Part shown: positions 9,560-19,125 of the stretch, in pieces | Layout: each line of letters begins with the position of its first letter | How positions within the stretch are numbered: the stretch's first letter is position 1 | Assembly (NCBI GenBank): GCA_027452025.1 | Contig: DAIDHI010000069.1 | Coordinates: 1 to 64,000, forward strand | From: Elusimicrobiota bacterium | GTDB lineage: Bacteria; Elusimicrobiota; Elusimicrobia; UBA1565; UBA9628 | Direction: 5' to 3' | Length of the DNA stretch: 64,000 nt | Translations under genes and position numbers: made by a program | The notes under the pieces: generated by a model | Told to the model about the DNA's origin: nothing | What the model saw: the letters and a program-made list of their open reading frames with translations, nothing else | The model's database searches: none

Positions 9560-10728
9560 TAGAGCGCGGCCCCCACGTGCCGCAGCTTCTCCACCGCCCC
9601 GGGCAGAGCCTTCAGCAGCCGGTCGACGTGCGCCTGCGTCGTGCCGTAGCCGAAAGATACGCGCAAGGAGCCCGTCGCCAGCCGCTCGTCCGCGCCCATG
9701 GCGACCAGGACGTGGGAGGGCGTCGAGGCCCCCGAGGAGCAAGCGGGGCCGCTCGACACGCAGATACCCTCCAAATCGAGGGCAACCACCAGATTATGGC
9801 CGTCGAGCCCCTCGAAGCTGAAGTGAGCGCAGTTGGGCAGGCGCCGGGTCGGATGGCCGTTGAGGCGCGAGCCGGGTATCTTCAAGACCCCCTCTTCGAG
9901 TTTTCCCCGGAAGGCCCGGAGGCGGCCAGCGTGAGCGGCCTCCCGCGCGGCGAGCTCGCAGGCCGCGCCAAGCCCCACGATGCCGGCGACGTTCTCGGTG
10001 CCGCCCCGGCGGTTCTTCTCCTGATGGCCCGTGATGGTTTGAGCAAGCCGCACGCCCTTGCGCACGTAGAGCGCGCCGACGCCTTTGGGCGCGTTGATCT
10101 TGTGCCCGGAGATCGAGAGCAGGTCCGCGCCGAGCTTGCGCGCGTCGAGAGGGAGCTTGCCCGCCGATTGCACGGCGTCGGTGTGGAAAAGCGCTCCCTT
10201 GGAGCGGCAGGCCTCGGCCAGGGTCTCCACGGGCTGGATCGTGCCGACCTCGTTGTTGGCGTGCATGACGCTCACGATGGCCGCGTCGGATGAAATCTTC
10301 CCAGCGGCGGCTTCGGCGTCAACGAGACCTTGGGCGTCGACGCCCAAGGTCTCGACCGAGGCTCCGCGGCGCCGCAGCGCTTCGACGACGCCGCGCACGG
10401 CGTCGTGCTCGATCGCGCTGGTGACGACCTTGCGCCGGCGGCCCCCTGCCTCGTCCTGGGCCTGCCAATAGGCCCCGGCGATGGCCATCACATCCGACTC
10501 GGAGCCGCAGGAGGTAAAGACGATCTCCTGGGGATCGGCGGCGCCGAGAAAGGAGGCGACTCGGGCGCGCGCTTCCTCGACGGCCCGCCGCGCCTGCTGG
10601 CCCAGCCAATAGGGGCTGCCGGGATTGCCGTACTGGCCCTTAAGAAAAGGCAGCATGGCCTCGAGGACCTCCGGGCGCACCGGAGTGGTGGCGTTATGAT
10701 CGAGATAGGCGAGGTCGCGCGGCGTCAC
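9559..10728 (-). CDS. Cysteine desulfurase (NifS/IscS family)
   Basis: PLP enzyme that removes sulfur from cysteine for thiolation or Fe-S assembly. Visible marks are YLDHNATTP at the N-terminus, the PLP lysine in SISGHKINAPKG, and the persulfide cysteine in SSGPACSSGA (the short-loop group with SSG after the Cys). Its length is 389 aa. It is coupled by overlap to both mnmA (TAATG) and the upstream lipoprotein (ATGA). No IscU/SufU scaffold is nearby, so supply of sulfur to MnmA is the most direct role that context suggests. Confidence 0.93.
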   Translation of the reverse strand: MTPRDLAYLDHNATTPVRPEVLEAMLPFLKGQYGNPGSPYWLGQQARRAVEEARARVASFLGAADPQEIVFTSCGSESDVMAIAGAYWQAQDEAGGRRRKVVTSAIEHDAVRGVVEALRRRGASVETLGVDAQGLVDAEAAAGKISSDAAIVSVMHANNEVGTIQPVETLAEACRSKGALFHTDAVQSAGKLPLDARKLGADLLSISGHKINAPKGVGALYVRKGVRLAQTITGHQEKNRRGGTENVAGIVGLGAACELAAREAAHAGRLRAFRGKLEEGVLKIPGSRLNGHPTRRLPNCAHFSFEGLDGHNLVVALDLEGICVSSGPACSSGASTPSHVLVAMGADERLATGSLRVSFGYGTTQAHVDRLLKALPGAVEKLRHVGAAL

Positions 10729-11450
10729 GGTCCGAAACCAAAGCCCTTGAAGAGGTCGTCGTCCTGCTTGCTCGACGCGTCGGCGGCCGGCTTGCTCGCC
10801 GCCGCCGGCTGTCCTTGAGGCGGCTTGGCCCCGGGAATCGCCGCCGTCGCCCGGCGGCCCACGACGGGCGCCACGATGGTCTTGCGAATGCCCTCGACGA
10901 AGATGATGCGGCCGCGCTTGCGCTCGTAATAGAGATGGAACTGGCTCTCCTTGGTCTGGGGCTCGTAAGCCTTGCCCAGCATCTCGCGCTCCTGCTCCCA
11001 GCCGGGATTATAGAGGAGCTTGCCGCGGACGTCGACGATGCCGTCGATGATCGGCAGGGTGAACCGGATGCGGTAAAAGCCGTTGGTATCGCTGACGCCC
11101 GGGTCGAAGGAGCTGACGGGCATGTTCTCGTTGATCAGGCCGTTATCCTCGAGCTGGGTATCGGCGGAGACGACGGCCCGCACGACCACGCCCTGGACGG
11201 GATTGTCCGCGTAGTCGGTGATGATGCCCTGGATGTAGCCTTCCAGGAACTGCGTCTTTTTGGGAATGGAGACGAACAGGAAGTCCTGATTGCCCGTCAG
11301 CTTTTCCGTGATCGACAGGTCGACGACCCGGCCTTCGGCGAAGTCCTGGACCACGATCTTCTTGTTGGCGGGACCGCAGGCGGCCAGAAAAGACGCGGCG
11401 GCCGCGGCGGCTGGCAGGAGCTTACTTTTCACGCCGAGCGATTTTATCAT
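10725..11450 (-). CDS. Lipoprotein in the motor operon
   Basis: A 241-aa protein with a clear lipobox, SFLAAC (Cys at about 25), so a lipid-anchored envelope protein. Its middle contains YIQGIITDYADNPVQGVVVRA and a following GFYRIRFTLP strand, resembling a carboxypeptidase-regulatory-like beta-sandwich. The C-terminus is Ala/Pro-rich. Its ATG follows the motB stop with no gap (TAAATG), and its end overlaps the cysteine desulfurase start. Position right after motA-motB suggests a part of, or anchor for, the motor; this is inference. No close family is recognised. Confidence 0.72.
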   Translation of the reverse strand: MIKSLGVKSKLLPAAAAAASFLAACGPANKKIVVQDFAEGRVVDLSITEKLTGNQDFLFVSIPKKTQFLEGYIQGIITDYADNPVQGVVVRAVVSADTQLEDNGLINENMPVSSFDPGVSDTNGFYRIRFTLPIIDGIVDVRGKLLYNPGWEQEREMLGKAYEPQTKESQFHLYYERKRGRIIFVEGIRKTIVAPVVGRRATAAIPGAKPPQGQPAAASKPAADASSKQDDDLFKGFGFGP

Positions 11451-12185
11451 TTATGGAGTCGCCTGGACCCCCGCTCCCGCTACGGGCTGGGGCTGCGGGG
11501 ACGCCTCGGCGGCCGGCGGCGCGGCCGCCGAGGGGACGGCGTCCGCGGTCTGCGGCGGGGGCGTGGTCTCGCCGTTCTTGATCAGGAAAACGACCCGCCG
11601 GTTCTTGGCCCGCCCCTCGGGCGTGGCGTTGGAGGCGATCGGGCGATATTGGCCGTAGCCGATGGCGCCGATGCGGCTGGGCGGTATCCCGTATTTGTCG
11701 ATGAGCAGCCGCGCCACGCTGGTGGCGCGCGCCGTGGAGAGCTCCCAGTTGGAATCGTAGTACTCGTTGCGGATGCCCTGGTTGTCGGTGTGGCCCTCGA
11801 CGATGATGTCGTGATCCTTGGAAAGCTTGCGAAGGATCGGCGCCAGCTTCTGGAGCTGGGCGTCGATCTCCGACGTGGTGTCGGCCGAGCCGCTGGCGAA
11901 GAAGGAGGCCGTGCCCTGCTCCTCGAGCGAGATCTTGAGGCCCTCCTTGTCGATCTTGACCTCGCCGTGCATCTGGCCCTTATCCATCATTTTCTTGACC
12001 TGAGCCGCGGCGTTCTGCACGTTCTTGTTGAGCGCCGCCGAAAGAGCGTAGAGGATGACGAAGAAGCAGACCAGTTCCGTCATCAAGTCGGCGTAATTGA
12101 CCAGCCAGGGAGGCGCGGGGTGGCCGATCTGGCAGACCTTCGGGTCGCTCTCGTCGATGAAGCCCTTCGGCGCGCGCAGCGGCAT
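11451..12185 (-). CDS. motB: MotB-type stator protein
   Basis: Ion-driven stator subunit that anchors MotA to peptidoglycan. The transmembrane segment LVNYADLMTELVCFFVILYAL holds the ion-binding Asp33 in the conserved YADLMT context. The C-terminal OmpA/MotB domain shows IIVEGHTDNQG, NWELSTARA and RAKNRRVVF, the peptidoglycan-binding pattern. At 244 aa it is slightly short, and a Pro/Ala tail follows the domain. It lies 1 base from the motA stop. The YADLMT pattern fits MotB better than TolR/ExbD. No filament genes are nearby, so its output device is unclear. Confidence 0.9.
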   Translation of the reverse strand: MPLRAPKGFIDESDPKVCQIGHPAPPWLVNYADLMTELVCFFVILYALSAALNKNVQNAAAQVKKMMDKGQMHGEVKIDKEGLKISLEEQGTASFFASGSADTTSEIDAQLQKLAPILRKLSKDHDIIVEGHTDNQGIRNEYYDSNWELSTARATSVARLLIDKYGIPPSRIGAIGYGQYRPIASNATPEGRAKNRRVVFLIKNGETTPPPQTADAVPSAAAPPAAEASPQPQPVAGAGVQATP

Positions 12186-12186
12186 A

Positions 12187-13002
12187 TCAGGCCGGGGTCG
12201 TGGGCTGTCCGGGCGCCGGCGCGGCGGCCGGGGCCTTGACCACCAGGCGCTTGGACGGCTCCAAGTACGCCTTCAGGTTCGCCTCCACGACGCTGGGCGT
12301 GGCGCCGCTTTGCAGCAGCAGCACGCCCCGAATGATGATCTCCTTGACGAGCAGCTCCTCCTCGGAGCGGCGGCGCAGCTTGCCGCCCATGGGCAGGAAG
12401 ATGAGGTAGCCCGACCCGAGGCCGAAAAAGGCGGCGGCGAGCGCGAGGGCCATGCGGCGCGGCACCTGGGAGACGTCGCTGATGTTGGAGAGCATCAGGA
12501 TCATGCCGAGCACCGTGCCGATCATGCCGAAAGCGGGCGAGTAGGTGCCCATGGCATTGAAGATTTCCTGGCCGACCTTGTGGCGTTCCCGGATGAAGCC
12601 GAGCTCCGTTTCAAGCATGTTGCGGATGAACTCTTGGTCGGCGCCATCGACGACGAGTTGGATGCCGCGGCGCAAAAAGTCGTTCTGGATGTTCTTGACG
12701 TCGGCCTGCAAGGCGAGAAAGCCCTCTTTCTTGGCCTTTTGGGACAGTGCCACGAATGTGCCGACGATGTCGGTGGAGTCGTCGCCCGAGGAGAAGAGAA
12801 CCTTGCGCACCACGCGACCCAGGCCCACGACCTGGCCGATGGGATAATTGACCAGGGTGGCGCAGAAGGTTCCGCCCATGACCATGAGCAGGGCCTCCAG
12901 GTTGGCGAAGGGCTTGAAGCCCGCCACCCCCTCCGAGATATAGATGGTGGCCACGGCCATCCCGAAGAAGGCCAGTATGCCCATGACGGTTGCGATATCC
13001 AT
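12187..13002 (-). CDS. motA: MotA-type stator channel protein
   Basis: Four-helix proton or sodium channel subunit that couples ion flow to force on the rotor. Hydrophobic helices are at about 1-22, 34-54, 152-173 and 183-203, with a cytoplasmic region between helices 2 and 3. The conserved proline lies in TYSPAFGMIGTVLG (Pro155). The 271-aa length matches MotA/PomA. The ATG at 13002 has a strong GAGGAG ribosome-binding site upstream. It is followed at once by motB and preceded, across an inverted-repeat element, by flbD: the spirochete/Firmicute order flbD-motA-motB. Confidence 0.92.
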   Translation of the reverse strand: MDIATVMGILAFFGMAVATIYISEGVAGFKPFANLEALLMVMGGTFCATLVNYPIGQVVGLGRVVRKVLFSSGDDSTDIVGTFVALSQKAKKEGFLALQADVKNIQNDFLRRGIQLVVDGADQEFIRNMLETELGFIRERHKVGQEIFNAMGTYSPAFGMIGTVLGMILMLSNISDVSQVPRRMALALAAAFFGLGSGYLIFLPMGGKLRRRSEEELLVKEIIIRGVLLLQSGATPSVVEANLKAYLEPSKRLVVKAPAAAPAPGQPTTPA

Positions 13003-13019
13003 TAGTTGCTCCTCGTTGC

Positions 13020-13078
13020 GGTGTCAGACTTTCACTTTTCACTTATCCCTGATAAGTGAAAAGTGAAAGTCTGACACC
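13020..13078. repeat. Palindromic interspersed element, copy 1
   Basis: A perfect inverted repeat with 28-base arms (13020-13047 and 13051-13078) and a 3-base loop. The outer arm begins GGTGTCAGACTTTCACTTTT. A second copy with the same outer sequence lies at 19941-19997. It sits between flbD and motA, where it would form a stable RNA hairpin. The size, palindrome and repetition resemble REP/MITE-like elements mobilised by REP-associated transposases; no transposase is in the window. Confidence 0.85.
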
Positions 13079-13086
13079 ATTACTCT

Positions 13087-13317
13087 CTACGGATTCTTGC
13101 GCTCGAACCCCTGGATCGGATTGACGGCCTTTCCCGAGGCGTTGACCTTCCTGCGATACTCGATGACCAGCTCCGTGACCTGCTGCGCCGTCTCCTTGAC
13201 CAGGAAGCGATTGCCCGTGGCCAGGGAGATGACCGTCTCCTGGCCCTGCTCCAAGGTCTCGATGAGCTCGGCGTTGATGACGAACGCCGTCCCGTTGAGT
13301 TTGTGCAGTGTAATCAC
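13087..13317 (-). CDS. flbD: FlbD family flagellar protein
   Basis: A 76-aa protein matching the small FlbD family in order and length: ITLHKLNGTAFVINAELIE, then TVISLATGNRFLVKET and a helix ending VIEYRRKV. FlbD sits in flagellar operons of spirochetes and Firmicutes next to motA/motB; its molecular role is poorly known. The start is GTG at 13317, which overlaps the stop of the upstream coiled-coil gene (GTGA). A longer open frame on this strand is a shadow of that gene. The position directly before motA is the canonical one. Confidence 0.85.
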   Translation of the reverse strand: MITLHKLNGTAFVINAELIETLEQGQETVISLATGNRFLVKETAQQVTELVIEYRRKVNASGKAVNPIQGFERKNP

Positions 13318-15332
13318 GCGCCGCCCTTGAGCTTGCGCTCGAGCTCTTCCTTCTCCCGCAAATACATCCGGCCCAGATGCGTTTCGCGCGCGAGCTGCCC
13401 GCGCAGGTTTTCCATCGCCTCCTGAAGATTCTGCACCTGCGCCGCCTGGGCGCTGCACAGCCTCTCCAACTCCTCGCCGCGGCCGGCCAGTTCGCGCTTC
13501 TCGTCTTCGAGGCGCCGCAGCGCTTCTTCCGCGCCGCCGGCCCGCTGCTGCAGGCTTCCCGCGCTCTCGCGCGACTCCTGCACGGCTTTTTCCAGCTCGA
13601 GGGCCCGGCGTTCCAGCGCCTGGCGAGTCTGAGCCTCGCGGCTGTAGCCCGTCGAAGCCTCGTCGAGCTTGGAGGCCTGCGCGTGCATCTCCGCGTCCTT
13701 GGCCATGACTCGCTGGGACCATTCGGCGTCGCGCTTGAAGATCTCCTTGTGAAGGCGGTCGATCTCGGCCTCCAGCTCCTTGCGCGCGTTATCCCAGTCG
13801 CCCTGCAGGCGCCTTACGCGCTCGGATTCCTGGCTCTGGCGCTCGGCCAGCCATACGGCCTGGGCCTTCTTGACCTCGGCGTCGCGCTCCTTGGCCAGCT
13901 GCTCGGCGATCTTGGCGGCCCGCTGGTTGACCTCGTCCTGGGCCAGGATCTTGAGCTTGACCTTCTCGGCCTCGATCATCTGCAGGGCCTGGGATTGGGC
14001 CTCGTTGCGGATTTCCTTCTCGCGCTCGACCCACTTGCGCTGCAGGACGACGAACTCCGCCTTATAGCGCTCTTGAGTCTTGGCGAGCTCTGCGTTCTGC
14101 GCCCGCGCCGCGGCGAGTTGCCGCTCCATCGCGCCGGCGACCCCGCGCAGCTTCTGCAAGTCGCCCATGTGGCGATCGGCGGCTTCCCTATATTGCCTAA
14201 GCTCCGCCTCGTGCTCGAGCTTCAGCCGGCGCTCGTCCGCCTCGTGCTCGACCTTGAGCTTTTCCGGCAGCGAGGCGATGTCGCGCTGGAGCCGCTCGAC
14301 GTCGGCCATCAGGCGCTCCTCGCGCTCCTTGGCGCTGATGCGCAGGGCCTGGACCTCGCGCTCCAGGCGCTCCTGCACGCCCGCCGCCGCCTGCCGCGAA
14401 AGCGCCACGTCGGCGCGCAGCTGGATGTTCTCCTTCTCTTTCTCGACGGCCAGCTGAGCGCGCGCCATCGCCTCGGCGCGCTCGGCGGTCAGCTCGTTGA
14501 CCTTATCCTGCAGCCACTTGCGCTCGCTGGCGACCTTGGATAGCTCCACGTCGGCGCCCTTTAGCTTCTCAGCCAGCGTCCGGAGGTTGCGGATCTCCTC
14601 GTCCTTGGCCAGCGCGAGCTTCTGCCACTGGGCCTTTTCCTCGAGCCACTTGCGCTCCGTTTCCTGGAGCCGCAAGCTGAAATGGGCCTCGATCTCCTTG
14701 TCCTGGGTCTCGCGCGACTGCATCTGGTTGCGAAGGGTGACCACCCAGGTTTCCCGCTCCTGCGCCAGGCGAGCCTCCATCTCCTGCAGCTTGGTCTCGA
14801 GCTTGAGCCGCGACTCCTCCTGCTCCTGGTCGCGGCGGTCGCGCCGCAGCTTTTCCTGCAGGTCCTTGATCGAGGACTCCACCCTCGCCGCGTTGGCGGC
14901 CTCTTCCTGCGCCTTGACGTTGGCGATGAGGATTTTCTCGCGTTCCTCCTGCAGGCGCTTCTCGAGCTCGGAAAGCTTCTTCTCCATCAGCTCCTTTTCG
15001 ACGTCCTTTTTTGGGGGCTCGGAAGCCGCCGGCGCCGCGGCAGCCGCCGGCAAAGGCATCACGGGCGCGAAAGCCAGGCCGGGAGTCCCGGGAAAGCCCG
15101 GCAGCGGCGGCACGGGCGGATGGCCTCCAGCCGCGCCGGGCAGGGGCGGCAACCCGCCGGCCCCGAACAGCGGAGGCTTGGCCGCGCCTGCGCCGCCGAG
15201 AAAGCTCGGCAAGGGCGGCTTCGGCCCCCCCAGCCCCGAAGGCAGTCCCGGCAGCGGCGGCGGCGCCCCCGCTCTAGGGGTCATCGGCGGCAGAGGCGGC
15301 CGCTTCGGAGGCTCCTGGTTGTCGTCGGGCAT
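13314..15332 (-). CDS. Large coiled-coil protein with proline-rich N-terminus
   Basis: A 672-aa protein. Residues 1-110 are Pro/Gly/Ala-rich with repeated PPLPG-type motifs, likely disordered. From about 112 to the C-terminus it is an almost unbroken Glu/Lys/Arg/Gln/Leu-rich coiled coil. There is no signal peptide or membrane helix, so it should be cytoplasmic. It lies between the FliF/FliG-like fusion and flbD, where flagellar operons often carry fliH, but it is much longer than FliH and no specific similarity can be claimed. A filament, scaffold or tether between rotor and other parts is conceivable. There is a 16-base gap to the upstream gene. Confidence 0.75.
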   Translation of the reverse strand: MPDDNQEPPKRPPLPPMTPRAGAPPPLPGLPSGLGGPKPPLPSFLGGAGAAKPPLFGAGGLPPLPGAAGGHPPVPPLPGFPGTPGLAFAPVMPLPAAAAAPAASEPPKKDVEKELMEKKLSELEKRLQEEREKILIANVKAQEEAANAARVESSIKDLQEKLRRDRRDQEQEESRLKLETKLQEMEARLAQERETWVVTLRNQMQSRETQDKEIEAHFSLRLQETERKWLEEKAQWQKLALAKDEEIRNLRTLAEKLKGADVELSKVASERKWLQDKVNELTAERAEAMARAQLAVEKEKENIQLRADVALSRQAAAGVQERLEREVQALRISAKEREERLMADVERLQRDIASLPEKLKVEHEADERRLKLEHEAELRQYREAADRHMGDLQKLRGVAGAMERQLAAARAQNAELAKTQERYKAEFVVLQRKWVEREKEIRNEAQSQALQMIEAEKVKLKILAQDEVNQRAAKIAEQLAKERDAEVKKAQAVWLAERQSQESERVRRLQGDWDNARKELEAEIDRLHKEIFKRDAEWSQRVMAKDAEMHAQASKLDEASTGYSREAQTRQALERRALELEKAVQESRESAGSLQQRAGGAEEALRRLEDEKRELAGRGEELERLCSAQAAQVQNLQEAMENLRGQLARETHLGRMYLREKEELERKLKGGA

Positions 15333-15348
15333 GATGTCTGGCTCCTAT

Positions 15349-17307
15349 TTAGCTGATTCCCGCCTGCGCCTTGAGGCTTTCCAGCCACTGTTGGATCTGC
15401 GGGTCCGGGTGCAGCTTGAGGACCTTCTCGAAATGGGCCACGGCGTCCTCGACCTTCCCCTGCTGGTAGAACAGGCCGCCGAGATATTGATGCGCCTGCC
15501 ACAGTCCCGGATTGAGGCCGAGCGCCGTCTCGAAGTAGGGGATGCTGGCCTCGGCTTGGCCGGCGTTGTAGTATTGAACGGCGGCGTCGAGGTACTGTTG
15601 GGCCTGGACTGGATCGTGGGCGGGCTGCGGGGCCGGCGCCGGCTGGCCGCCCCGCGCCTTGACGAAGCGCTGCTCTCGCCGCTCCTGGGCCGAGAGCTCC
15701 TCCTGCATGCCCTCGACGACGTCGTAGCTGCCGTCCTGGGTCTGGCGCACGGCGATTTTGCCCTCCTTCTCGAGCGCCTTGACCACGTCCATGATCTTGG
15801 CGCGCTCCTCGTCGACCTGGGCTTGGTTGATGTTGACGATGTATTCGATGGACTCCTTGAGCAGGGACGCGGCGCCCGCCGACATGTTGCTCAAGAACTT
15901 GTTGAGCAGCTCCGGAGAAGCGCCGTGCAGCGCGCGGGCCATGTTCTCGGCCTTGAGCTCGCGCACGACGGTCTGCATCTCGCGGTCGGGGAAGCCGGTG
16001 ATGTCGTCGAAGACGAGGACGTGGCGGCGCACGGCCTCGTAGATCATGGGCTTCTCGTTCCGGAGGTAGTTGAGGATGTTGTTGCGCGTCGTCGTGTCGG
16101 CCTCGTCGAGCATGTGGGTCAAGCGCTCCATGCCTCCGACGACGAAATCCACGTTCTCCTTGACGTCGGCGTCTATGGCGATGACCTGCTCGCGCGTGAC
16201 CTGCCGCAGCGTCAGGGCCTCCAGCGCCACCTTGGACTGCATCTCGACGGGCAAGGACGCGATCATCGCGCGCGCCAGCTCCGGCTTGAGATAGCTGGCG
16301 ACGACGGCGACGATCCAAGGCTCCTCCTTGCGCAGGATGAACATGTAGGCCAGGCGCTTGACGTTCTCCTCGGTGATGTAGGAAAAGGGCTCGAATTTCT
16401 TCATCTCGTCGTCCTCCAGCAGAAGCGGCGGCGGCGGCGGCTCGTCGGGCTTGTTCTGCACGGTCAAATCCAGCTTGCCTTCCTGCAGCATGCTGCCGTC
16501 CTCTTCTCCCTTGCCTTCGTCGTCGGGTTGCTCGATCTTGGACTCGACGTTGACCTCGGCGGCGGGCTTTTCGCGCAGCGCCTTGACGTAATCGCGGAAG
16601 AAGCGCCACAGCGGACCGAACAGGAAGGACAGGAGCAGCAAAAACAGCAGCGCGTAGAGCAGGGGCAGGTAGACCTGCGGCTTCTTGAGGTCGTCGTGCC
16701 AGTCGATCTGGATGTGTTTGAACTTCGTCGGGCGGAAATAGACCTGATCGGGCTGGAGCCCGTACTGGGCCATGGCGTCGACGATGCGGCTGCGGACCAG
16801 CTCGACTTGCGCCTTGTCCTTGAGAACGCCCTCGTCGTGGATGATCGTGACGCCGAGCTTCTTGAAGACGGGATTGACGGCGTAGCGCTCCTCCTGGATG
16901 CCCTTGGTCTGCTGCGCCTGCTGCGCCGAGGCCGCCTCGGGCTTTTGCGGGCCGTTGCCGGTGATCGTCTTGGGCTTTGGGATGCCCGGCATGACGTCGA
17001 TGGTGGGCATCGCCGCCATGCTCTCCGCGGCCAGCTTCTCGCGGTATTTCTCGGCCAGACCCATGCCGGCCCGGGTCGAATCCTCGCTCTCGACCTTGAT
17101 CTCCATCTCCACGTCGACGAAGGGCACGGCCTCGCCCTTGCCGAGGATGGGGTCCAAGATGTCGTTTTGGATCATCGCCTCGGACTCGTTCTTGATGCGG
17201 TTTTCCTCCTTTAGGAGGTCGATGTTCGGGGCGACGATCGCGCACAAGCCCGGCCGCGAGCCCGCGGCCAGCAGGAGGATCAGGAGCATCCCAATTCGCC
17301 TATCCAT
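15349..17307 (-). CDS. Membrane fusion protein: FliF-like periplasmic part + FliG rotor domains + TPR
   Basis: A 652-aa protein. Residues 1-22 form a signal peptide. About 23-205 are extracytoplasmic; 146-197 (FKKLGVTIIHDE...) looks like the segment preceding the last membrane helix of FliF. A transmembrane helix spans about 211-231 and an acidic linker 245-305. FliG-like middle and C-terminal domains cover about 310-520: RKEEPWIVAVVASYLKPE resembles the EHPQ region, and GGMERLTHMLDEAD, LVFDDITGFPDREMQ and KALEKEGKI match FliG-C. TPR repeats follow at about 565-645. This joins MS-ring and C-ring switch functions in one chain and adds TPRs. It heads the coiled-coil-flbD-motA-motB operon. The FliG match is strong; the FliF match is tentative. 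Confidence 0.85.
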   Translation of the reverse strand: MDRRIGMLLILLLAAGSRPGLCAIVAPNIDLLKEENRIKNESEAMIQNDILDPILGKGEAVPFVDVEMEIKVESEDSTRAGMGLAEKYREKLAAESMAAMPTIDVMPGIPKPKTITGNGPQKPEAASAQQAQQTKGIQEERYAVNPVFKKLGVTIIHDEGVLKDKAQVELVRSRIVDAMAQYGLQPDQVYFRPTKFKHIQIDWHDDLKKPQVYLPLLYALLFLLLLSFLFGPLWRFFRDYVKALREKPAAEVNVESKIEQPDDEGKGEEDGSMLQEGKLDLTVQNKPDEPPPPPLLLEDDEMKKFEPFSYITEENVKRLAYMFILRKEEPWIVAVVASYLKPELARAMIASLPVEMQSKVALEALTLRQVTREQVIAIDADVKENVDFVVGGMERLTHMLDEADTTTRNNILNYLRNEKPMIYEAVRRHVLVFDDITGFPDREMQTVVRELKAENMARALHGASPELLNKFLSNMSAGAASLLKESIEYIVNINQAQVDEERAKIMDVVKALEKEGKIAVRQTQDGSYDVVEGMQEELSAQERREQRFVKARGGQPAPAPQPAHDPVQAQQYLDAAVQYYNAGQAEASIPYFETALGLNPGLWQAHQYLGGLFYQQGKVEDAVAHFEKVLKLHPDPQIQQWLESLKAQAGIS

Positions 17308-17429: not shown

Positions 17430-19040
17430 TTACTTCATCTGCTGCAGGAACTGCTTGACCGAGGCGTTGCTGGGATCGAGCTCGAGCACCCGGCGCCAGA
17501 CCGCCACGGCCTTCTGCTTCTGGTCCATCATGTAGAACGCCGAGCCCATGATCTCGAGAGCGGTGACGTTGTTGGGCTCGAGATCCAGAACGTCCTGGGC
17601 GCGGCGCACGGCATCGTCGTAGTGGCCGTCGTAGACCGACTGCCGGGCGGCGTAGATCTTCTGGTCGACCCACGTGAACTGCTCCGGGCCCTCCATGCGG
17701 CGGGTGATCTCGGCGACGCCCGCCTCCTTCTCGACCATATTCAGCAGGCCGAGCAGGTGATCGTCCTTCGGGTTCTTGTTGTAGGCGTAGCGCAGGGCGT
17801 TGACCGCCGAGCGCATGTCGCGCCCGTCGACGTAGGCGATGACGCCCTTGCGCACGAAGGTCTGGTATTCCTCGCCGCCGGCCGCCTGCGGGATGAAGGA
17901 GGTGACGTTGGCTAGGCGCGCGACCATGGCCTGGACCTGCTTGTTGTCGGGCTGGGCGTCGAGAGCCTGATTGAACTTCTGCTGCGCCAGGGCGAAATTG
18001 CCCTCCTGGAAAGCCTCGAAACCGAGCTTGATGGCGAGCTTGACCTCGGCGGTGGAGCGGTCGCCCTTGGACTCGCCGAAGCGGAACGTCGCCGAGATGC
18101 GCGTGCTGTTGCCGAGATCGTGGATGCCCTGCGCCACGTCGATGGACATGCTGTGGAAGTTGAGGCCGAAGCCGAAATCCGTCTCCTGGATCGAAGGGAT
18201 GCCCATGAGGCCGAAGCGGAACGCGAACCAGTGGGAAATCCAATACTCGCCGCCGAAGCGCAGGTCCATGCCGGCGTTGAGATACTTGTCGGCATCCAGG
18301 GCCAGGGTCATGCGGTTCTTGAACAGGTTGACGGCGTTGCCGATCTTGATCGTCACGGGCAGGCTGTCCTGCGTGTCCCCGGTGCGCTGGGAGAAAGCGT
18401 TTTGCATGCCCAGGCCGAGCCGGTAGGGGCCCATCGTCTTGAGCACGCCCAGGTTCAAGGTCCTGAAGCTGTCGGCCGAGCCGGCAAGCTTGCGGGAGAT
18501 ATCTTGGAGCGTGGCGCCGAAGGCCACGGTCTGGGTGATGCTCTTGCCCCAGGACAGGCCGTAGGCCGTCTCCTGATCGGCGAAATTGCCGGCGGTCTGG
18601 ATGCTCGTAGGCTCCTGGGTGTTGGGGTCGAAGGTGGCGTTGACGGTCTGGAAGCCCGTGGAGGCCAACTGCGTCATCGAAGCGGCGAAAGTGCTACCGC
18701 CCTTGAGCGGCTGGGCGTAGGCGAAATACTGCATCTTCGTCTGCTCGAAGAGCGAGGCCTGCATCGTGGTGAACTGCTTGCGCTGAAGTTGAGCCAGGCC
18801 GGCCGGGTTCCAGTAGGCGGCCGTGGCGTCGTCGGAGATGGCGTAGAAGGCGCCGGCCATGGCCAAAGCGCGCGCGCCGACGCCGAACTGGAGGAACTCT
18901 CCGGGTTGGCCGCCAGTCTGGGGCGCGGAGAGCGCCCAGGCCGGGCGCGCGCTCGCGCATAGAAGTCCCATCACGGCCAGGACGGCCGCAACAGGCGTCA
19001 AACGCCTGGGGGACAAGCCCCAAGTCTTAGTTCGGGCCAT
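17430..19040 (-). CDS. PorV/PorQ-like outer-membrane barrel with C-terminal TPR domain
   Basis: About 536 aa. A signal peptide (ends near ARPAWA-LS) is followed by the family opening GGQPGEFLQFGVGARALAMA and YWNPAGLAQLQ, then beta-strand-rich barrel sequence to about residue 320, and TPR-like helices to the end. PorV-type proteins are outer-membrane shuttle/anchor proteins known from Bacteroidetes type IX secretion and common elsewhere. An in-frame GTG at 19061 falls inside the riboswitch aptamer, so the ATG at 19040 (MARTKTWG) is chosen. It has no strong Shine-Dalgarno. It is upstream of, and likely linked to, the motor operon. Confidence 0.85.
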   Translation of the reverse strand: MARTKTWGLSPRRLTPVAAVLAVMGLLCASARPAWALSAPQTGGQPGEFLQFGVGARALAMAGAFYAISDDATAAYWNPAGLAQLQRKQFTTMQASLFEQTKMQYFAYAQPLKGGSTFAASMTQLASTGFQTVNATFDPNTQEPTSIQTAGNFADQETAYGLSWGKSITQTVAFGATLQDISRKLAGSADSFRTLNLGVLKTMGPYRLGLGMQNAFSQRTGDTQDSLPVTIKIGNAVNLFKNRMTLALDADKYLNAGMDLRFGGEYWISHWFAFRFGLMGIPSIQETDFGFGLNFHSMSIDVAQGIHDLGNSTRISATFRFGESKGDRSTAEVKLAIKLGFEAFQEGNFALAQQKFNQALDAQPDNKQVQAMVARLANVTSFIPQAAGGEEYQTFVRKGVIAYVDGRDMRSAVNALRYAYNKNPKDDHLLGLLNMVEKEAGVAEITRRMEGPEQFTWVDQKIYAARQSVYDGHYDDAVRRAQDVLDLEPNNVTALEIMGSAFYMMDQKQKAVAVWRRVLELDPSNASVKQFLQQMK

Positions 19041-19043
19041 TAG

Positions 19044-19125
19044 TTCGGTAGCCTGACGCACTACCCTAGGGCAGTGTCACGGCTTTGCGCCCCTGCCTTG
19101 CGGCAGGTTTGCCTTTATCGCCCAT
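19044..19125 (-). promoter_or_regulatory. GEMM-I cyclic di-GMP riboswitch
   Basis: On the minus strand the leader contains, in order, AAAGGCAAACC, a helix capped by a GCAA tetraloop (UGCC-GCAA-GGCA), GGGGCGCAAAGCC, a second helix (CACUGCCC...GGGUAGUG) and GGCUACCGAAC. These are the hallmark conserved blocks of the GEMM-I aptamer, including the GNRA tetraloop. The base before CAAACC is G, equivalent to G20 of the Vibrio Vc2 aptamer, which favours c-di-GMP over 3',3'-cGAMP. The aptamer ends 3 bases before the ATG of the PorV-like gene, so ligand binding probably acts on translation initiation. Confidence 0.85.

What the first reader, a model, noticed from the sequence alone, without database searches (positions are those of the whole stretch)
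10725..17307. A flagellar-motor-derived machine without a flagellum
Seen: one minus-strand operon carries a FliF/FliG-like membrane fusion, a 672-aa coiled-coil protein, FlbD, MotA, MotB and a lipoprotein, with no hook, rod, filament, export-gate or FliM/N gene within 45 kb on one side and 8 kb on the other. Known: FliG transmits torque from MotA/B, and flbD-motA-motB is a conserved flagellar order. Inference: stator and switch parts have been kept to drive something else, such as gliding, envelope transport or secretion. The stator Asp33 and FliG-C motifs look functional, so it is probably active.
Basis: partly seen in the sequence, partly recalled or inferred. Interest (0 to 1): 0.93.

Follow-up and report, generated by a model that had tools for sequence, protein, structure and literature searches.

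The report
Flagellar rotary motor without a flagellum
Many bacteria of the phylum Elusimicrobiota carry the rotor and stator genes of the flagellar motor, with the rotor ring and its torque-receiving part joined in one protein, in genomes where no flagellum export gene was found; the parts likely form an ion-driven rotary machine that would move something in the cell envelope instead of a swimming filament.

Summary
The finding holds and is larger than described. The operon encodes one protein that joins a FliF RBM3/collar-like domain, a membrane helix, FliG middle and C-terminal domains and TPR repeats; then a long coiled coil, FlbD, MotA, MotB and a lipoprotein. A PorV-family/TPR gene upstream (17430-19061) belongs to it. 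The host genome (93.9% complete) has no match to FlhA, FliM/N, canonical FliF or rod/hook families, but three such fusions, each with MotA, MotB and a TPR gene nearby. In Elusimicrobiota FliG_C occurs in 120 of 294 genomes, FlhA in 3 of 294. Of 45 named loci with enough flank, 44 have MotA, 44 MotB, 42 PorV. MotB's proton Asp is kept in 62 of 63 rows, FliG Asp288 is Glu in 81 of 81, FliG Arg281 is Gly in 78 of 81. One flagellated relative carries this operon beside a separate FliF and FliG. Beside one paralogue type lie genes with T9SS-type sorting tails. Best reading: a flagellum-free ion-driven ring motor coupled to outer-membrane PorV/TPR proteins, probably serving surface-protein transport or gliding. 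That it rotates, and what it drives, is inferred. I found no description in the papers searched.

The parts
17430..19061 (-).
   Evidence: NCBIfam PorV_fam 100.2 bits over cut-off 90; TPR_2 E 2.5e-11; directly upstream of the fusion in 42 of 45 named loci with enough flank
15349..17307 (-). FliF(RBM3/collar)-TM-FliG(M,C)-TPR fusion, 652 aa: predicted one-piece rotor subunit
   Evidence: Pfam FliG_C, FliG_M, TPR; PDB profile search hits FliG chains, E 7.8e-41; Foldseek FliG E 7.4e-13
16714..17244 (-). FliF RBM3 + collar-like domain, predicted periplasmic (about residues 22-198)
16618..16674 (-). transmembrane helix (about residues 212-230)
   Evidence: hydropathy peak 2.49; helix 209-245 in the model
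15733..16389 (-). FliG middle and C-terminal domains (about residues 307-525)
15358..15615 (-). C-terminal TPR repeats (about residues 565-650)
13314..15332 (-). 672-aa coiled coil (by eye) with Pro-rich N-terminus, no hydropathy peak, no Pfam family at E<=1
   Evidence: homologue downstream of the fusion in 45 of 45 evaluable named loci; coiled-coil-like genes of 414-1602 aa at this place in three distant relatives
13087..13317 (-). FlbD (76 aa, GTG start overlapping the stop of the coiled-coil gene)
   Evidence: PF06289 E 3.2e-22, 78.3 bits; 43 of 45 loci
12187..13002 (-). MotA, flagellar (MotP/PomA-like) type stator subunit, 271 aa
   Evidence: PF01618 98.1 bits; NCBIfam MotP E 6.5e-65 full length, below equivalog cut-off; 44 of 45 loci
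11451..12185 (-). MotB, 244 aa: TM with proton Asp33, MotB plug, OmpA peptidoglycan-binding-type domain
   Evidence: PF00691 74.6 bits, PF13677 45.0 bits; Asp kept in 62 of 63 distinct rows; 44 of 45 loci
10725..11450 (-). lipoprotein (lipobox LAAC by eye), 241 aa; only a very weak carboxypeptidase-regulatory-like match (E 0.19)
   Evidence: 41 of 45 loci

Best explanation
This operon encodes a flagellar-type rotor as a single FliF(RBM3/collar)-FliG-TPR protein together with a flagellar-type MotA/MotB stator and a PorV-family/TPR protein, in a genome where searches for four flagellar families (FlhA, FliM/N, canonical FliF, rod/hook) found nothing, and it likely works as an ion-driven ring motor that would act on the outer membrane instead of turning a filament. 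Shown: domain make-up, gene order, no match to those families, conservation of key residues. Predicted: the FliF-derived part assembles a ring; MotB is anchored in peptidoglycan by its OmpA domain; ions passing MotB Asp33 turn MotA, which pushes the FliG C-terminal domain through the kept contact (MotA Arg90 -> Lys/Arg with FliG Asp288 -> Glu). With FliM/N not found and the second contact altered, the motor is probably not switched in the flagellar way. Inferred: the periplasmic collar passes motion to the TPR part of the PorV-family protein. Because one paralogue type sits beside genes with T9SS-type sorting tails, the likeliest output is transport or movement of surface proteins (secretion or gliding), much as GldLM powers both in Bacteroidota (passages of PMC9389320). 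The long coiled coil would be a cytoplasmic scaffold or localiser on the FliG/TPR side. My odds: flagellum-free motor about 0.85; output through PorV/TPR to surface proteins about 0.45.
For: Fusion domains. Own genome: FliG_C 3 matches, MotA_ExbB 6, FlhA 0, FliMN_C 0, YscJ_FliF 0, Flg_bb_rod 0. Phylum: FliG_C in 120 of 294, FlhA in 3 of 294. Synteny: of 76 named loci, 45 with >=3 kb left and >=7 kb right: coiled coil 45, MotA 44, MotB 44, FlbD 43, PorV 42, lipoprotein 41. Residues over distinct rows: FliG D288 -> E 81 of 81, MotA R90 -> K/R 62 of 63, MotB D32 62 of 63. The three paralogous loci in one genome share fusion, MotA, MotB and TPR or PorV-TPR. Sorting tails beside PorV: TIGR04183 29.3 bits over cut-off 23 in L011:17015-17407; sorting-tail-like genes next to a PorV-like gene in 7 of 10 evaluable C88-type loci (two of the 7, L158 and L159, come from near-identical relatives).
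Against: No expression, localisation or motion data were seen; rotation is inferred. FliG Arg281, a stator contact in E. coli (PMC12505986, passage seen), is Gly in 78 of 81, and MotA Glu98 is Gln in 37 of 63, so the interface is not the flagellar one unchanged. Sorting-tail genes lie beside the C88-type paralogue, not beside the window's own operon, and that paralogue's PorV-like protein is below the PorV_fam cut-off (59.8 against 90 bits). The CHU_C matches of its neighbours are below cut-off. The TIGR04183 search also rings in 2 of 14 control genomes, over the cut-off in 1. The SprA_N search found nothing, but no control rang, so it says nothing either way. PorV-family proteins also occur outside T9SS (recalled). 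174 of 294 sampled genomes have no FliG_C match. The whole-fusion model has pTM 0.35, so its domain arrangement is not predicted. Ring formation and the MotA-FliG contact were not modelled.
Confidence: 0.6

Rival explanations
1. The motor's output is cytoplasmic: the FliG/TPR ring moves or positions the long coiled-coil protein (an AglZ-like trafficking or polarity scaffold), and the PorV gene is only co-regulated.
For: A coiled-coil homologue follows the fusion in 45 of 45 evaluable named loci, and coiled-coil-like genes of 1602 and 1065 aa stand in tandem in one distant relative; C88-type loci also have a coiled-coil/kinase-like gene.
Against: C60-type loci (L010, L166, L167, L171) have fusion, MotA, MotB and TPR with no coiled-coil hit in the search used, while TPR or PorV-TPR recurs in all three types.
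Confidence: 0.2
2. The complex does not rotate: MotAB-FliG-FliF is a tethered force transducer or sensor (Tol-Pal/ExbBD-like energy coupling) in which FliG clamps the stator.
For: Only one of the two E. coli stator-rotor charge contacts is kept; genes resembling histidine kinases and response regulators flank C88-type loci (named by eye).
Against: MotA matches flagellar stators over its whole length, and the periplasmic part has the fold of FliF's ring-building RBM3.
Confidence: 0.15
3. Remnant of a lost flagellum kept by chance.
For: FlbD-MotA-MotB is a flagellar gene order (recalled); cheap retention of a few rotor genes after filament loss is discussed in PMC12199754 (section 14 read).
Against: Conserved operon over the phylum, up to 8 FliG_C matches in one genome, conserved key residues, coexistence with a separate FliF and FliG in G215.
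Confidence: 0.03
4. The flagellum is really present but missing from the assembly.
For: The genome is 93.9% complete in 105 contigs; FliP and flagellin were not searched.
Against: Four flagellar families give 0 matches; 291 of 294 sampled genomes of the phylum have no FlhA match.
Confidence: 0.02

Closest known systems
Bacterial flagellar motor (FliF MS-ring, FliG rotor, MotA/MotB stator)
   Same: FliF RBM3/collar fold, FliG middle and C-terminal domains, full-length flagellar-type MotA, MotB with Asp and OmpA-type domain, FlbD
   Different: no room for RBM1-RBM2 in the chain; FliF part and FliG in one protein with added TPR; no FlhA, FliM/N or rod/hook match in the genome; FliM-binding stretch altered; Arg281 mostly Gly; PorV-family/TPR gene in the operon
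T9SS/gliding engine of Bacteroidota (GldLM, with PorV)
   Same: works like it if the reading is right: ion-driven inner-membrane motor beside a PorV-family protein and, in the C88-type paralogue, T9SS-type sorting-tail genes
   Different: stator is flagellar-type MotAB with a FliG rotor; SprA not detected, though that search had no working control; GldK/L/M/N not searched
Myxococcus AglRQS gliding motor with the coiled-coil AglZ (AglRQS and AglZ passages seen in PMC9389320; the coiled-coil nature of AglZ recalled)
   Same: MotAB-related motor without a flagellum, with a large coiled-coil partner
   Different: no FliG/FliF rotor is described there in the passages seen; here MotA is of flagellar type
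Zorya anti-phage system (ZorA/ZorB)
   Same: the window MotB matches ZorB models, E 2.9e-23
   Different: no match of any kind for the 3 MotA proteins or the fusion at E<=0.01 (the third MotA, that of C69, C60 and C88 each scanned once)

Membership tests
Bacterial flagellum | type III export gate (FlhA) | tested here: not met
   PF00771 0 matches in own genome, control rang in 4 of 14; 3 of 294 in the phylum
Bacterial flagellum | C-ring switch FliM/FliN | tested here: not met
   PF01052 0 matches, control rang in 4 of 14
Bacterial flagellum | rod/hook proteins | tested here: not met
   PF00460 0 matches, control rang in 4 of 14
Bacterial flagellum | canonical FliF (YscJ_FliF domain, RBM1-RBM2) | tested here: not met
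   PF01514 0 matches, control rang in 4 of 14; the fusion matches RBM3/collar only
Bacterial flagellum | flagellin filament and FliP | not tested
Flagellar-type torque unit (FliG C-terminal domain plus MotAB) | FliG_C domain with the stator-facing fold | tested here: met
Flagellar-type torque unit (FliG C-terminal domain plus MotAB) | MotB proton-binding Asp and peptidoglycan-binding domain | tested here: met
   Asp in 62 of 63 distinct rows; OmpA domain over cut-off
Flagellar-type torque unit (FliG C-terminal domain plus MotAB) | both charge contacts R90/D288-D289 and E98/R281 (pairs as stated in PMC12505986) | tested here: inconclusive
   first pair kept (K or R 62 of 63; E 81 of 81), second not (R281 -> G 78 of 81); the flagellar FliG of G215 also lacks Arg there by eye, so this does not exclude a working contact
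Type IX secretion system / gliding | SprA/Sov translocon | tested here: inconclusive
   PF14349 0 matches but no control genome rang
Type IX secretion system / gliding | PorV-family protein | tested here: met
   PorV_fam 100.2 bits over cut-off 90 for the window gene; the T9SS-specific PorV model scores 28 bits against a cut-off of 250
Type IX secretion system / gliding | cargo with C-terminal sorting domain | tested here: inconclusive
   6 TIGR04183 matches in the genome, 5 over cut-off; control rang in 2 of 14; CHU_C below cut-off
Type IX secretion system / gliding | GldL/GldM motor, GldK/GldN ring | not tested
   no search of these families was made
Zorya | ZorA motor protein | tested here: not met
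   no match at E<=0.01 for the 3 MotA proteins scanned

The most novel reading that the evidence does not exclude
A new class of ion-driven rotary machine: a self-contained FliF-FliG/MotAB ring motor, free of any type III export gate in most of its hosts, that turns PorV/TPR outer-membrane complexes to export or move surface proteins. Because the FliG tree does not resolve whether these rotors branch from or beside flagellar FliG, it could even be a surviving relative of the motor module from before it joined the flagellum.
Probability: 0.25. Interest if true: 0.97.

Novelty: new variant of a known kind. Interest (0 to 1): 0.87.

Why it matters
The flagellar rotor-stator pair is usually met only inside a flagellum. 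[quoted passage not shown] Here is a concrete, phylum-wide, multi-copy operon in which the rotor is rebuilt as one protein and paired with flagellar-type stators and a PorV-family partner. If it turns, it adds a new type of ion-driven rotary machine, gives a natural reduced rotor for structural work, and makes the question of how motor and export gate came together directly testable.

Tried and rejected
Canonical FliF: no match to Pfam YscJ_FliF; the FliF relationship rests on RBM3/collar only. hhalign of the N-terminal family against two Elusimicrobiota FliFs gave 61.5% probability over 41 columns. hmmsearch with that two-sequence FliF profile passed the inclusion threshold for 8 of 11 fusions (C60, C88 and L048 did not), in a database of 11 sequences only. 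The N-terminal profile against the PDB gave SpoIIIAG E 0.012 and FliF E 0.039, neither significant. The fold match and the Pfam cut-offs passed by relatives decided it. Zorya rejected. SprA search uninformative. The FliG tree sets flagellar FliG (3 rows, support 95/86) and the window type (12 rows, 92/79) each on one side of a branch, but the deeper order is unresolved, several branches are long and the domain cutting was rough. Out-of-phylum spread: where a source names an organism, (best 120 of 412 listed), 53 and 72 name only Elusimicrobia/Elusimicrobiota, and the 76 titles are Elusimicrobi* or plain 'bacterium'; these searches favour close relatives, so wider spread is not excluded. Literature: ten searches, of which I saw listings and abstract starts (at most 20 papers each); none looked like a description of this operon. 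One search (whole words FliG and Elusimicrobiota) found one paper, a hamster gut metaproteomics study (abstract start seen). Passages of PMC7203096 were seen and did not bear on it. Two DOIs that I recalled as Elusimicrobiota genome papers are not held.

Rows dropped: one search counted 45 of 76 loci, the other 31 having short flanks. One search counts contain contigs fetched twice under two collections; one search repeats them on rows distinct in their last 150 residues, with fusions of at least 560 aa, MotA of 200-400 and MotB of 150-450 aa, phmmer E<1e-15, and without L063 and L064 (loci of flagellated relatives); shorter fusions such as C60's were compared apart (14 fusions). For the C88-type count I judged 11 loci by eye and dropped L173 (3105 bases); of the 10 left, L160 and L164 have no PorV hit and L176 has a PorV hit without a tail.
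Full report
Identity of the host. The window is contig C69 of a 3,245,199-base assembly, 93.93% complete, 2.45% contaminated. Contigs of same-family genomes match public records by exact length (27,721 bases: G256:C86 and JACQPG010000117.1 'Elusimicrobia bacterium'; 43,853 bases: G257:C32 and PLZD01000004.1), so the host is inferred to belong to Elusimicrobiota. Named homologues agree.

Anatomy. On the minus strand, from upstream: PorV-family + TPR (17430-19061), fusion (15349-17307), coiled coil (13314-15332), FlbD (13087-13317), MotA (12187-13002), MotB (11451-12185), lipoprotein (10725-11450). The fusion has a first hydrophobic segment (7-25, signal or membrane anchor), a predicted periplasmic domain, a second membrane helix (about 212-230), FliG middle and C-terminal domains, and TPR repeats.

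No flagellum found. FlhA, FliM/N C-terminal, YscJ_FliF and Flg_bb_rod: 0 matches each in the host genome, each with the control ringing in 4 of 14 genomes. FliP and flagellin were not searched. In the phylum sample FliG_C is in 120 of 294 genomes and FlhA in 3 of 294. Of those three, G032 and G215 also have FliG_C; G245 has FlhA and FliF but is not among the genomes listed with a FliG_C match. G215 carries the full window-type operon on contig C132 (PorV, fusion, coiled coil, FlbD, MotA, MotB, lipoprotein) and, on contig C78, FlhA, FliF and a separate 320-aa FliG. So there the operon is not the only rotor of the flagellar set.

Conservation. Among 76 named loci from one scan, 45 have enough flank: coiled coil 45, MotA 44, MotB 44, FlbD 43, PorV 42, lipoprotein 41, the neighbouring cysteine desulfurase 13. 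With a distant relative's fusion as query, 26 proteins were found, identity down to 27%. In several more distant relatives the order PorV-fusion persists while no MotA/MotB hit lay within the stretch fetched (L047, L049, L050, L052-L055).

Paralogues. The host has two more fusions, on C60 and C88, with MotA and MotB nearby: C60 has fusion-MotA-MotB-MotB-TPR; C88 has two response-regulator-like genes, MotA and MotB on one strand and, facing them, a kinase-like gene, a coiled-coil/kinase-like gene, the fusion, another kinase-like gene and PorV-TPR (kinases and regulators named by eye). C60-type order recurs in L166, L167 and L171. In C88-type loci, sorting-tail-like genes lie upstream of PorV in 7 of 10 evaluable loci. 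In the host these are a 714-aa protein with fn3 domains (fn3 35.4 bits over cut-off 25; CHU_C 24.3 bits, below its cut-off of 27) and a 130-aa protein that passes TIGR04183 (29.3 bits, cut-off 23) but not CHU_C or Por_Secre_tail of Pfam (21.1 and 18.2 against 27). The C88 PorV-like protein is below the PorV_fam cut-off (59.8 against 90).

Mechanism. From established knowledge of the flagellar motor, MotAB turns in place when ions pass and drives the FliG ring (also in passages of PMC9389320). With the FliF ring domain and FliG in one chain, ring and torque receiver cannot separate. A PDB chain is named as FliF joined to FliG (8z4d), apparently a construct, so such an arrangement can be built. 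The next steps (a ring in this organism, motion passed through the collar to the TPR part of the PorV-family protein, use in surface-protein transport or gliding) are inferred. The C88 sorting-tail genes are the main support for that output and concern a paralogue, not the window's own operon.

Known or new. PMC12199754 (passages and section 14) reports 11% of non-motile species with a rotor protein and no filament, without naming a system. PMC12505986 (passages) divides MotAB relatives into flagellar and generic types; its main text does not hold the word Elusimicrobi*. PMC9389320 (passages) reviews 5:2 motors. Ten paper searches listed no description of a FliF-FliG fusion with MotAB in a flagellum-less lineage; most subscription papers are not held, and two DOIs tried were not available.

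Verdict. Observation confirmed and extended; interpretation supported in its core. On present evidence the flagellum-free rotor-stator assembly is a new variant of a known kind. It would become a new kind if rotation and a surface-protein output were shown.

Noticed in passing
window 13020-13078, between flbD and motA: A perfect 28-bp palindrome with a 3-base loop (RNA fold -47.9 kcal/mol, z -12) sits inside the operon; 25 bases of its arm occur 5 times exactly in the genome, including an inverted pair spanning 881 bases on C34, so it looks like a small mobile or REP-type element.
   Followed up: partly
L056:2144-5421: A second, different FliG-domain fusion with its own MotA and MotB lies just upstream of the window-type operon in relative G061; its FliF_C match is below cut-off.
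   Followed up: no
L051:14052-15420: In relative G004 there are two tandem MotB genes; the first has lost the proton-binding Asp, the second keeps it.
   Followed up: no
G245:C208 (L067:2505-3248): A relative with FlhA has a short 248-aa gene that looks FliG-like by eye beside a FliF gene, yet no FliG_C match is listed for that genome.
   Followed up: no
phylum sample, family f4: The 15 listed members of family f4 without a FliG_C match have small genomes of 1.3-1.7 Mb, while a larger f4 genome (G134, 2.2 Mb) has a match (the list of genomes without a match is cut).
   Followed up: no
L010:13936-14835: A transposase-like gene, resembling REP-associated types by eye, lies next to the C60 paralogue.
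   Followed up: no
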